This document shows positions 4,801-14,388 of a stretch of 64,000 bases of DNA, one piece after another (position 1 is the stretch's first letter; each line of letters begins with the position of its first letter). The DNA comes from Ricordea florida (lineage: Eukaryota; Cnidaria; Anthozoa; Corallimorpharia; Ricordeidae): assembly GCA_949710005.1 (NCBI GenBank), contig OX453285.1:989797-1053796 (forward strand), written 5' to 3'. The notes under the pieces were generated by a model that saw nothing but the letters and a program-made list of their open reading frames with translations, was not told the origin of the DNA and made no database searches. The translations under genes were made by a program, and so were the position numbers.

Positions 4801-7800
4801 TAGCTCCGCCATTGAAAACTTTTCGCAACCTTCATTCTGCATGGGGTGTTTAAACGAGTGACAAGTTACGACTCTAGATGATAAGTTTTGCCGCATTAAA
4901 ACTGGTGCATTCTTTTCGCCACGACCAAATGTAAACAATCGTATTAATTGATAGTGTTGTTGGAAAGTTAAATTATCTTAAATGATAAATCGAGGGTTTG
5001 AAAGTCTAATAAAACTTATAGAATACAAAATATTAACACTACAAACAAGTCACGGGGTAAGATTTCGAAAAGTAGTTGGCGATACTTTAGCCTTCGATAA
5101 AAAACAAACAAAAGGAATCCGTCGGCATTTGACGACTTTGACGGGCTTTGTGACTCTTATTTACACAAGGGCGCCTTTGCAGATTCTTTGTCGCTGATAA
5201 GAGAAAAAACTTTCGCCCGCCGAATCCTAAACAAACATCTCTGGCCTTTCGAACGGATGACTGTAGCCGTCCGCACGGGTGAAGATTTCCTCTAAACGGA
5301 TACTGAGCTGTTCGAGCAAACGAGCGGATTACGTTCGTTTTTTTCCTGAGAGGATGACCGAAGCTGTTCAAACGGATCGAGAGATTTTTTGAACAGATGA
5401 CTCAAGCCGTTCGAACGGATCGAGAGATTTTTTGAACGGATGAGCCGAGCCGTTCGAACGGATGCTAATTTTTACTGAACGGATGACCAAAGCCGTTCGA
5501 ACGGATGCAAATTTTTTCTGAACGGATGACTCAAGCCGTTCGAACGGATCGAGAGATTTTTTGAACGGATGAGCCGAGCCGTTCGAACGGATGCTAATTT
5601 TTTCTGAACGGATGACCGAAGCCGTTCGAACGGATGCAAATTTTTTCTGAACGGCTGATAAACGGCTTGTGAACGGAATTCCGTTCAAAAACGGAAAGCC
5701 GTTAGTGTACGTTTTCGCGTGAGAGGTCACATTTCCACTTCAGAACTAAAAATTGACAAAAATGAATGATCTTAGAGTCTAGGCAAAGAAACGAAGAGAA
5801 AGGTAGTCCAATTAACTACATATTGAGTTTTATTTTATTTTTATTACTTTGTATTTTGCATAATTTACATTGCAACTTTTCCAAATTCTGTAGCATAGTC
5901 GTACATCGGTTGATCAAACCTTGACTTTTGGTAGCCCTGGTTAGTTTTAACTCACCACTGGCGACTGTGCGACCGCCAGTTTTTAGCCCTGGTTACATCT
6001 TAAGTTTGCTGATAACAAAAGTAAAAATGATAGGTGCTACTACGACGAAATTTTCATGTCATACTTATTAAAAAAAAACATTTAAATCAACTTATTAATA
6101 AAGACTGTAAGTTACTTTTTCACTGAAATGAAGGTTTACCACGCGCAAACTGGAAAAATCTAGCTCCGAAAAGTTCGTTTTTTTACGTCCGCCATTGCAA
6201 ATTTATGTTCCAGTGAGCCTGCGATATGGGCTGCAGTTATAGCCATTTGATCTATTGCCTTGTTCTCGTGACGTCATTTTCTTAACTCCGGTTAGCGTCC
6301 TCTCGGTATATTTTGCTTTTTTCTCGCCACAAAATGTCTCGTTCGCCTTCACCTTCGTCTTCACGCGAAAGTAATCATACTTTTAGCGACGAAAGTGAGG
6401 CCGGGAGCCTCTCTGAAACATCGTCCACCGAAAAAGCTGGGTACGATGACTCTGTAGAGCCGGTTCCGACCGAAGAAGAAGTTTCACAGTATCTTCAGCA
6501 GCTGGATTTGGAGGAGGAAGAAGAGCAGATATTGCTCAGCCGTTTTTCTGGAGAGGAAGACATTGGGAATTGGTATGTACTCATGCCCTGATTCGTGTTA
6601 ACAAATACAGAATCTTTCACCATACTACAAGCATTTTAATATAATCCACAGTTATACGTTTACGGATTACGTAGCCCTTGTTAATCAGCCTCGAATTCAC
6701 AGAGTAAGCTTAGTCTATGGTGAGCGTAGATACAGCAACTTTTTCAGTATCACTTTAGATGGCTTCTGCGACGTTGACCTCGGCGGCCAGTGAGCACATA
6801 TCGGCTGAATACTAAGGCAGCTGATCGTTTGGGTGAAATTATCATGTCATTCCTTTCTTTTCTACATCACATTTTGTGTAGGTGTAAATGTTCCAATTGC
6901 TCCCTTGAGCGTATCACAAAATCGGAAGAGTGTTGGTGCTGCATAGATATGGATAGGTGCAACGAGAGTATGTTTGCGGTCGATAAGGAAGGTGAATGTA
7001 TCACCGCACACCCAGGCTATGCAGCATGTTGTTTGAACAGCTGGGTCCTCTCCACAGCAGCTATACGCCTCAAGACTACGGCTAAAAAGACCTACAGTAC
7101 TACAAAGACGGAAAGAAACGCAGCAGAGTCCGAGTGAGTGCTATTATTTAATTTCTGATATTTTTTTCAACATCATGAAAACAAAGCGAATTGAAGGTCT
7201 TACTAATGTCAGACAATGTTTTGTTGGTGAGATGAAATGATAGGTACTTTTCATCAACCTATATAAAATGAAGAAAAAAATTAGAGGACATGTTTGTATT
7301 AACCCTGGACTTGTATATTGTCATCATTTATCGAAATGTGAGGATACGGAAATGATTATTTGAAAAAAAAAGTAAGGATGTGAGTTGCCTTCATATGTGC
7401 CATTAGAGCCAGTGGGCCCAAAAAGGACAGTTACATGCACTGTGCTCTGCTAACCATCACAGTTTTTATTTCAGGTTCATGCGGTCTGTAGCATATCGCC
7501 AATTTGTGCACCTTGTCTATGGGTATGTTGGGGCCTCAAGGAGAATTCCACTGCCCAACTGTGTGTACAACAGTATACGAAAGACATTTCCTAATGTGGG
7601 TAATGAGTACACAGGCTATGAAGAGGAAGAAACCCAGGACTGATTATTAAAGCAAAACTTTGGTAACAGCATTTTGCATTGTGTATATATGGTGAATTAA
7701 AATAAACTGTATTCTGTATCACCACCCTTTAATAATACAGTTTCCTTTGCCACCAACAATTGTGAATGTCATGATTAAGGTCTAATATTATTCACTGGTA

Positions 7801-13800: not shown

Positions 13801-14388
13801 GTAACCAGGTCGCAAGAACATGGCGTTTTAATGGCGGGCGAAAATTCGAAGAGTTTGAGTGCTAAAATAATACAGTTCTTGCCATCTTACAAAAACGAAA
13901 ATTGGAAGTAAAGTTCTCAAGGATGTTACCTAGCTTTTGAACTGAAAAAAAAGTTATGTGAAAATTTCGTCGTAGTAGCACTTAAAGCTCTTTCCTTGTT
14001 TTCCTTTTCTGTTTTCTTTCAATTGATTTTTTAAATCCTAGATCAACAAGATGCCCAACCAGATGATGCAGCTATACATGATGAAAGACCTACAAAATTT
14101 AAGCAATCTCTGAGGAAAAGACCAGTTTCTGAAACATTGTCTGCAAAGCAAAGTGTCTCACAAGCTGTCTCAATAGACCTGCCTGTTACCAGAAGAAAGA
14201 ACTCCAAACAGACGACAAAAATCCCACCAAACAACAAGGCAAAGAATTTAAAAGAAGGCAATGATGATAAGAGTTGGTTGAGTCCAGTGTTGAAGCTTAT
14301 TTTGGCTATACTGTGCTTTGTGGTATTTACAGCAGCATTGATTTACATATTAATGGAGCAAGTGCCAAGCAATCAGATAGAGGCTTAA
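1851..14388 (+). CDS. LAP2/thymopoietin-like inner nuclear membrane protein, C-terminal part (partial gene)
   Basis: Two exons join in phase: 1851-2045 (acceptor tcag, donor gtatgt) and 14042-14388 (acceptor cctag, stop TAA at 14386-14388). The first exon begins inside a codon with [K]KLLVEERKK, which resembles the end of a LEM domain (YEKKLL), then turns into a Lys/Ser/acidic linker. The second gives a basic, Ser/Thr-rich nucleoplasmic-type region and a single C-terminal membrane segment (LKLILAILCFVVFTAALIYI), followed by MEQVPSNQIEA and the stop. That layout (LEM, long disordered basic linker, single C-terminal anchor ending ME-x-N-like) is that of LAP2-type proteins, which tether chromatin and lamins at the inner nuclear membrane. 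The LEM exons would be left of the window. The roughly 12-kb intron is packed with transposons. Family assignment is inference; another tail-anchored LEM or nuclear-envelope protein is possible. Confidence 0.5.
2107..2187. repeat. (ATG)n-like microsatellite
   Basis: An imperfect gat/gtg triplet run lies just downstream of the donor at 2046. Met-rich and Ile-rich open frames over it are artefacts of the repeat. Confidence 0.8.
2967..3393 (+). repeat. Direct duplication of a ~200-bp segment
   Basis: 2967-3172 and 3210-3393 are diverged direct copies. Each runs from a 'ttca(c/t)g(a/g)cgg' start, through 'gccagatgttt' and 'ctttattgatcgctttaacttaag', to 'gaagaggaa(c/t)gtaaacaaaac'. Both are internal to the 41-bp-TIR element. 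Confidence 0.7.
3597..4470. repeat. 46/52-bp minisatellite, about 18 copies
   Basis: Each unit contains 'tttgactcaattg', 'gaagacgctt', 'cgatt' and 'aaaacct(c/t)'. Spacing between successive 'tttgactc' motifs alternates between 52 and 46 bp because a 6-bp tttagc-type segment is present or absent. Variants (gattaga versus gatttca) are interspersed, suggesting repeated block duplication. Confidence 0.85.
6267..6286 (+). promoter_or_regulatory. CRE-like (TGACGTCA) promoter block of the P2RX7-C-like gene
   Basis: CGTGACGTCATTTTCTTAAC lies 48 bp upstream of the ATG at 6334. The identical block occurs inverted upstream of the THAP gene at 13748-13767. TGACGTCA is the consensus CREB/ATF site. Its use as a promoter element here is inference from position. 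Confidence 0.5.
6334..7643 (+). CDS. P2X7 C-terminal (ballast)-like cysteine-rich zinc-binding protein
   Basis: Three exons in phase: 6334-6572, 6882-7133 and 7475-7643, giving 219 residues and TGA at 7641-7643. Residues 1-79 are a Ser/acidic low-complexity leader. From residue 80 the cysteine pattern WCKCSNC, then ECWCC, then CITAHPGYAACCLNSWVL, then YRQFVHLVYGYVGASRRIPLPNC and IRKTFPN...YTGYEE matches the intracellular C-terminal ballast domain of vertebrate P2X7, a zinc-coordinating module; stand-alone homologues are familiar in invertebrate genomes. No P2X channel domain or membrane segment is present, so it is not a receptor. It lies inside the TIRs of a THAP element and is fully open while the transposase is frameshifted. 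Role unknown; DNA, RNA or protein binding is plausible for a soluble Zn-cluster protein. Host capture or a transposon accessory protein are both possible. Confidence 0.75.
7701..7706 (+). terminator. Poly(A) signal AATAAA of the P2RX7-C-like gene
   Basis: AATAAA lies 58 bp after the stop codon at 7643. A minus-strand ATTAAA (ttTAAT-type at about 7728-7733) lies 55 bp past the stop of the convergent transposase gene, so the two transcripts end within tens of bases of each other. Confidence 0.6.
7788..13683 (-). CDS. THAP-domain DDE transposase-like gene (13 exons, two frameshifts)
   Basis: Exons (5' to 3' on minus): 13352-13683, 12819-12890, 12676-12738, 12325-12543, 12020-12182, 11710-11932, 11020-11561, 10578-10791, 10165-10416, 9169-9340, 8585-8733, 8155-8352, 7788-7930; about 913 residues. 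Exon 1 is a THAP C2CH zinc finger (MVGSRCVVQGCSN ... FVICSAHFEEHCF), a DNA-binding fold common in transposases. Exons 2-6 are acidic, with a short coiled coil in exon 5. Exons 7-11 hold the transposase-like core: CTQCKREFTW, GDGRHDSMGHSAKYG, FISDRHSQI, FFDLWH, LEGYHSVVNQFA. Exon 13 ends in a C-x2-C..H..C knuckle (CKKCGQPRRGHKKGQC). Intron phases agree throughout except for a 1-base deficit in a 7-A run in exon 1 (about 13420) and an out-of-frame stretch in exon 7 near 11320, next to a duplicated AAGTTCCCT. It is probably inactive unless these are sequencing errors. Confidence 0.7.
9767..9943. repeat. Near-perfect 76-bp-arm hairpin (foldback repeat)
   Basis: Arms 9767-9842 and 9868-9943 are inverted copies with a single mismatch, separated by a 25-bp loop. 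It lies in the intron between exons 9 and 10 of the THAP gene, so it is either a MITE nested in the larger transposon or a recent palindromic duplication. Confidence 0.85.
13748..13767 (-). promoter_or_regulatory. CRE-like (TGACGTCA) promoter block of the THAP gene
   Basis: This is the inverted copy of the 20-mer at 6267-6286, placed 64 bp upstream of the transposase ATG (13683-13681). A GGTCGCAA..TTGCGACC inverted motif lies just outward (about 13777-13815). Confidence 0.5.

What the first reader, a model, noticed from the sequence alone, without database searches (positions are those of the whole stretch)
6034..13981. P2X7 ballast-domain gene carried inside a THAP DNA transposon
Seen: a three-exon frame with the cysteine and aromatic pattern of the P2X7 intracellular ballast domain lies, together with a THAP/DDE transposase-like gene, between identical 23-bp terminal inverted repeats and identical 20-bp subterminal inverted repeats. 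Known: in vertebrates this module is the C-terminal part of P2X7, and its source outside P2X receptors is debated. Inference: the domain may be an accessory or cargo protein of a mobile element family, and the vertebrate receptor could have gained it from such an element.
Basis: partly seen in the sequence, partly recalled or inferred. Interest (0 to 1): 0.88.

Follow-up and report, generated by a model that had tools for sequence, protein, structure and literature searches.

The report
Coral Kolobok transposon carrying KolX
A jumping gene in a coral-like genome carries, next to its own transposase, a small zinc-binding gene whose relative forms the tail of the vertebrate P2X7 receptor; the link is real but was published in 2022, so this is a well-preserved example rather than a new discovery.

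The parts
6034..6056 (+). left terminal inverted repeat, 23 bp
   Evidence: identical to 13959-13981 reversed; only 2 matches in window with up to 3 mismatches, none in 100 shuffles
13959..13981 (-). right terminal inverted repeat, 23 bp; followed directly by TTAA
6266..6286 (+). left subterminal inverted repeat, 21 bp, holding TGACGTCA (6269-6276), 58 bp before the KolX start codon
13748..13768 (-). right subterminal inverted repeat, 21 bp, holding TGACGTCA (13758-13765), 75 bp before the THAP start codon
6334..6572 (+). KolX exon 1 (acidic N-terminal part)
   Evidence: spliced open frame
6882..7133 (+). KolX exon 2 (CxCxxC, ECxCC and further cysteines of the zinc site)
7475..7643 (+). KolX exon 3 (AYR...PLPxC...IRKxFP tail) with stop codon
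13425..13683 (-). transposase exon 1: THAP domain
   Evidence: Pfam PF05485; coordinates
11716..12890 (-). transposase middle exons (12819-12890, 12676-12742, 12325-12543, 12033-12182, 11716-11932); exact joints not settled, acceptor proposed for the second is not AG
   Evidence: weak to moderate match to P0028 residues 82-299
11020..11561 (-). transposase exon with first catalytic D (AGDGRHDSMGH) and the frame break
10578..10791 (-). transposase exon with second D (SDRH) and the DxxH motif (DLWH)
10165..10416 (-). transposase exon of the insertion region between DxxH and E
9169..9340 (-). transposase exon with third catalytic residue E (SCLEGYHS)
7791..8733 (-). transposase last exons (8585-8733, 8155-8352, 7791-7930), ending in CxxC...GHxxxxC

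Best explanation
The 7.9-kb stretch is one copy of a Kolobok cut-and-paste DNA transposon of the KolX-carrying (Kol0) lineage in a coral-like genome. Shown: the ends, two convergent genes, THAP domain and DDE signature, ballast-type KolX, and the gene pair in other animals. Inferred: the transposase binds the ends through its THAP domain and moves the element into TTAA sites; KolX is an accessory protein made together with it, both from promoters just inside the ends that share TGACGTCA (CRE/ATF-like) and CCGCCAT (YY1-like) motifs. This copy has an open KolX but a broken transposase, so it is probably no longer autonomous, although its ends look intact. What KolX does chemically is not shown; most likely it is a zinc-stabilised partner of the transposase or of the element's DNA, perhaps responsive to guanine nucleotides.
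Against: No matching TTAA duplication here: TTAA right, ATAG left. The identical 23-bp core begins GT, while published Kolobok ends are 5'-RR (PMC9587614) or AG in Xenopus (PMC6004289); counting one or two more bases outward gives RR (AG left, AA right) but then TTAA does not fit. In one search the TIR alone aligned best to another spot of L001, about 70 bases further in (15 of 1000 shuffles as good), and the window's left end did not align beyond chance (102 of 300 shuffles), so the L001 end is only suggestive. No further TIR copy in the window and no whole-genome count. Transposase broken. No tree with reference Kolobok lineages was made.
Confidence: 0.92

Rival explanations
1. A host ballast-domain gene bracketed by chance, or captured once, by a THAP transposon.
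For: Only one copy in the window; no target-site duplication.
Against: The gene pair recurs in Acropora cervicornis and, in the same tail-to-tail order, in mussel-derived DNA. KolX relatives fall into three clusters each in Acropora palmata and Montipora foliosa and four in Actinostola. Published as the standard second gene of Kol0. Both genes start just inside the ends behind the same 21-bp repeat.
Confidence: 0.03
2. KolX has been taken over by the host and the element is a relic around a host gene.
For: KolX is open while the transposase frame is broken.
Against: The 23-bp and 21-bp repeats are still identical, which suggests a young copy; one frame break can be recent or an assembly error. 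Selection on KolX was not measured.
Confidence: 0.06
3. The subterminal 21-bp repeat is a transposase (THAP) binding site rather than a promoter element; not exclusive with the main explanation.
For: P element transposase binds internal sites near each end (PMC7776569 passages); the repeat is identical at both ends.
Against: What recurs in L001 is the TGACGTCA core, 107 bp before its THAP start, which resembles a recalled transcription-factor consensus.
Confidence: 0.35

Closest known systems
Kolobok, Kol0 lineage with KolX (Kojima & Bao 2022, PMC9587614)
   Same: Transposase with DDE and DxxH plus KolX with the cysteine-based ballast fold; lineage reported in cnidarians among others
   Different: TTAA duplication and RR terminus not verified in this copy; transposase frame broken; placement in Kol0 rests on KolX, not on a tree
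Xenopus XKol Kolobok elements (PMC6004289, passages)
   Same: THAP plus DDE transposase; TTAA seen at one end here and at the L001 junction
   Different: Their listed ends begin AG and 9 of 10 have TTAA at both sides; the word KolX does not occur in that paper's main text
Vertebrate P2X7 ballast domain (exon 13)
   Same: Same fold and zinc cysteines
   Different: Fused to a receptor and in one exon (PMC7016195 passages); KolX is a separate protein from three exons; of five rat GDP contacts only the R546 and R578 equivalents are kept
P element / THAP9
   Same: THAP plus RNase H-like core
   Different: P element has a GTP-binding insertion domain and makes 8-bp duplications (PMC7776569 passages); here DxxH and E are about 120 residues apart (H607 to E728)

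Membership tests
Kolobok superfamily | DDE transposase with C/DxxH between second D and E | tested here: met
   GDGRHDS, SDRH, DLWH, CLEGYHS in window frames; matching columns invariant or at least 90% conserved in 31 chosen of 73 relatives
Kolobok superfamily | THAP domain in the transposase (as in XKol) | tested here: met
   PF05485 E 4.8e-13
Kolobok superfamily | 4-bp TTAA target-site duplication | tested here: inconclusive
   TTAA at right end only, ATAG at left; TTAA at the one junction of L001
Kolobok superfamily | termini 5'-RR | tested here: inconclusive
   23-bp core begins GT, preceded by AG (left) or AA (right); exact end not fixed without other copies
Kol0 lineage | encodes KolX with the ballast fold | tested here: met
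Kol0 lineage | transposase groups with Kol0 in a tree | not tested
   reference Kolobok set not at hand
P2X7 ballast (P2RX7_C) | seven zinc-ligand cysteines | tested here: met
   window protein has all seven; no substitution in the 20 rows of A4, one gap in one row at three of them. A4 holds 20 of 72 listed relatives; the dropped P0012 and P0013 lack some of these cysteines, probably through faulty gene models. That there are seven is from PMC9587614; which positions they are is recalled
P2X7 ballast (P2RX7_C) | GDP-contact residues of rat P2X7 | tested here: not met
   2 of 5 positions kept (R546 and R578 equivalents, 18 of 20 rows each), as PMC7016195 reports for invertebrates
P element | GTP-binding insertion domain and 8-bp duplication | tested here: inconclusive
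   stretch from DxxH to E about 120 residues; no 8-bp duplication seen; GTP-binding residues not compared

The most novel reading that the evidence does not exclude
KolX supplies in trans the guanine-nucleotide function that P element transposase carries inside its own GTP-binding insertion domain: a zinc-built, nucleotide-sensing subunit of the Kolobok transposition complex, later reused as the cytoplasmic tail of P2X7.
Probability: 0.12. Interest if true: 0.75.

Novelty: new member of a known kind. Interest (0 to 1): 0.42.

Why it matters
It gives a readable example, from a lineage far from vertebrates, of the transposon gene proposed as ancestor of the P2X7 ballast domain. An open KolX beside its transposase makes the ancestral function of that domain testable: the receptor tail's zinc site, and perhaps its guanine-nucleotide site, may date from work in DNA transposition.

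Tried and rejected
Chance bracketing was rejected because both gene starts sit behind the same repeat and the gene pair recurs elsewhere. P-element membership was considered and not adopted (no 8-bp duplication seen; KolX present). A viral source was looked for: KolX, the KolX alignment, the transposase alignment and the exact TIR gave no relative in viral contigs (3 stretches matched, none a relative; 33, none; 9, none; 0). In genome contigs 102 stretches matched and 2 encoded relatives, both in records of bacterial assemblies but with animal-type content. A single-sequence PDB search with KolX found nothing; the profile did. The transposase profile gave 14 PDB hits up to E 1, best 0.016; the one alignment shown lies in a low-complexity region and none is a transposase by name. 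For L001, only the right-end alignment supports the presumed terminus; the TIR-alone alignment pointed about 70 bases further in, and the left-end alignment was at chance level. TGACGTCA is absent from L002. Of 111 inverted-repeat pairs in L002 the 25 longest were shown and none encloses both genes, so the ends of the mussel element are not known. Further literature searches (P2X7 with Kolobok; P2X7, ballast, guanosine, zinc; P2RX7_C names with coral) failed unanswered, so later work may be missed; others (P2X7, ballast domain, transpos; KolX, Kolobok) each returned only PMC9587614, and one search returned nothing.

Full report
What is there. A 26-nt inverted repeat (96%), of which 23 bases form an identical core, bounds 6034-13981. 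A second, identical 21-bp inverted repeat starts 232 and 213 bases inside the two ends. On the plus strand three exons join into a 219-aa open frame that Pfam names P2RX7_C (48.8 bits). On the minus strand runs a gene with an N-terminal THAP domain (50.1 bits) and exons holding GDGRHDS, SDRH, DLWH and CLEGYHS. The two genes point at each other.

The transposase copy is damaged. Inside the exon 11020-11561 the match to the Acropora millepora relative P0028 changes reading frame: P0028 residues 299-379 lie at window 11563-11321 and residues 386-479 at 11298-11017, in another frame. The KolX frame is open. Neither could be checked against a second assembly.

Relatives. With KolX, 27 proteins pass E 1e-3; the 15 that carry a name are from corals and sea anemones (Acropora, Montipora, Oculina, Stylophora, Actinostola), the other 12 are unnamed. 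The alignment search lists 70, adding Exaiptasia, Actinia, Desmophyllum and the jellyfish Rhopilema among the named; together 72 different proteins. With the transposase, 73 proteins pass; the named ones are from corals, anemones, octocorals, a jellyfish, molluscs, a sponge, amphioxus, a priapulid and fish. So the window is most likely from a hexacoral; the species was not established.

Linkage elsewhere. In Montipora foliosa both kinds carry the contig length 43,476,796 bp and in Acropora muricata 30,617,840 bp, which at chromosome size is weak evidence. A contig filed under a Bathymodiolus symbiont (L002) holds transposase segments on the plus strand within 3547-8987 and KolX exons on the minus strand near 12541 and at 11740-11603; these two exons joined score 90.3 bits to P2RX7_C. 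That is the same tail-to-tail order, in what I take to be mussel DNA.

Ends. A contig filed under a Marinifilum genome (L001) carries a related transposase (71% in its best segment). Upstream, a reverse-transcriptase frame runs to LNFDATLKSLK and breaks at CTTTAAAG. From there the DNA aligns to the window's right end, TIR included (score 26, reached by 5 of 300 shuffles, largest shuffle 36). Against this, the TIR alone aligned best about 70 bases further in (15 of 1000 shuffles as good), and the window's left end aligned no better than chance (102 of 300). I read the junction as TTAA followed by AGTGGTACTATG, which would fit Kolobok, but call it suggestive. In the window the right TIR is followed by TTAA and the left is preceded by ATAG, so the duplication is not demonstrated.

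Regulation. TGACGTCA occurs twice in the 64-kb window, both times in the subterminal repeat (14 of 100 shuffles have two or more, so the count alone is weak), and once in L001, 107 bp before the THAP start (12 of 200 shuffles have one). It is absent from L002. CCGCCAT stands 155 and 144 bases, and TGACGTCA 235 and 216 bases, from the window's left and right ends; in L001 the figures are 150 and 212 counted from position 1081, five bases before the presumed first base. The names CRE/ATF and YY1 are recalled. I read the pair as a shared promoter module; binding by the THAP domain is the alternative.

What is known. Kojima & Bao (PMC9587614; I saw the abstract, sections 3 and 10, and passages of sections 12 and 16) state that the Kol0 lineage encodes a transposase and KolX, that KolX shows the ballast fold, and that P2X7 arose by fusion of a P2X4-like gene with KolX. 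Rump et al. 2020 had found free ballast proteins across animals without the transposon link ('transpos' occurs 0 times in the main text, passages). A 2023 Clytia paper (PMC10620158, passages) cites only the Rump fusion model in what I saw. THAP in Kolobok is in print (PMC6004289, passages).

Mechanism. Shown: the gene pair, its repeats, its recurrence. Inferred: cut-and-paste into TTAA by the THAP-DDE transposase, joint expression with KolX, loss of autonomy of this copy. KolX's biochemical role is unknown. P element transposition needs GTP bound in an insertion domain (PMC7776569, passages), and the P2X7 ballast holds a guanosine nucleotide (PMC7016195, passages). KolX as a separate guanine-nucleotide subunit of Kolobok is a bold reading that nothing here excludes, but the loss of three of five contacts speaks against a conserved pocket.

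Noticed in passing
window 9767-9943: Two 76-nt arms, 99% complementary, 25 nt apart, lie between two transposase exons; perhaps a small foldback element in an intron.
   Followed up: no
window 5340-5658: A tandem array (43-bp unit, 129-bp higher unit) just left of the element.
   Followed up: no
window 15545-16603: A minus-strand frame with DUF4371 (E 2.6e-22), a domain I recall from hAT-like transposases; the adjoining frame 15016-15630 had no Pfam match.
   Followed up: partly
window 18969-19586: A minus-strand frame with a Mutator-like transposase match (PF20700, E 5.4e-10); the next frame 18485-18928 had no match.
   Followed up: partly
window 35269-39348: A 1360-aa open frame with reverse transcriptase, RNase H and integrase domains, a retroelement polyprotein.
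   Followed up: partly
window 14035-14388: A frame ending in a hydrophobic segment with a sub-threshold RAMP4 match (E 0.0016, 18.8 bits against cut-off 24); perhaps a host 3' exon whose intron holds the element.
   Followed up: partly
L001 (JAOARS010000090.1) and L002 (NZ_CAHJWD020000427.1): Animal-type DNA filed in bacterial assemblies: coral-like under Marinifilum and mussel-like under a Bathymodiolus symbiont.
   Followed up: yes
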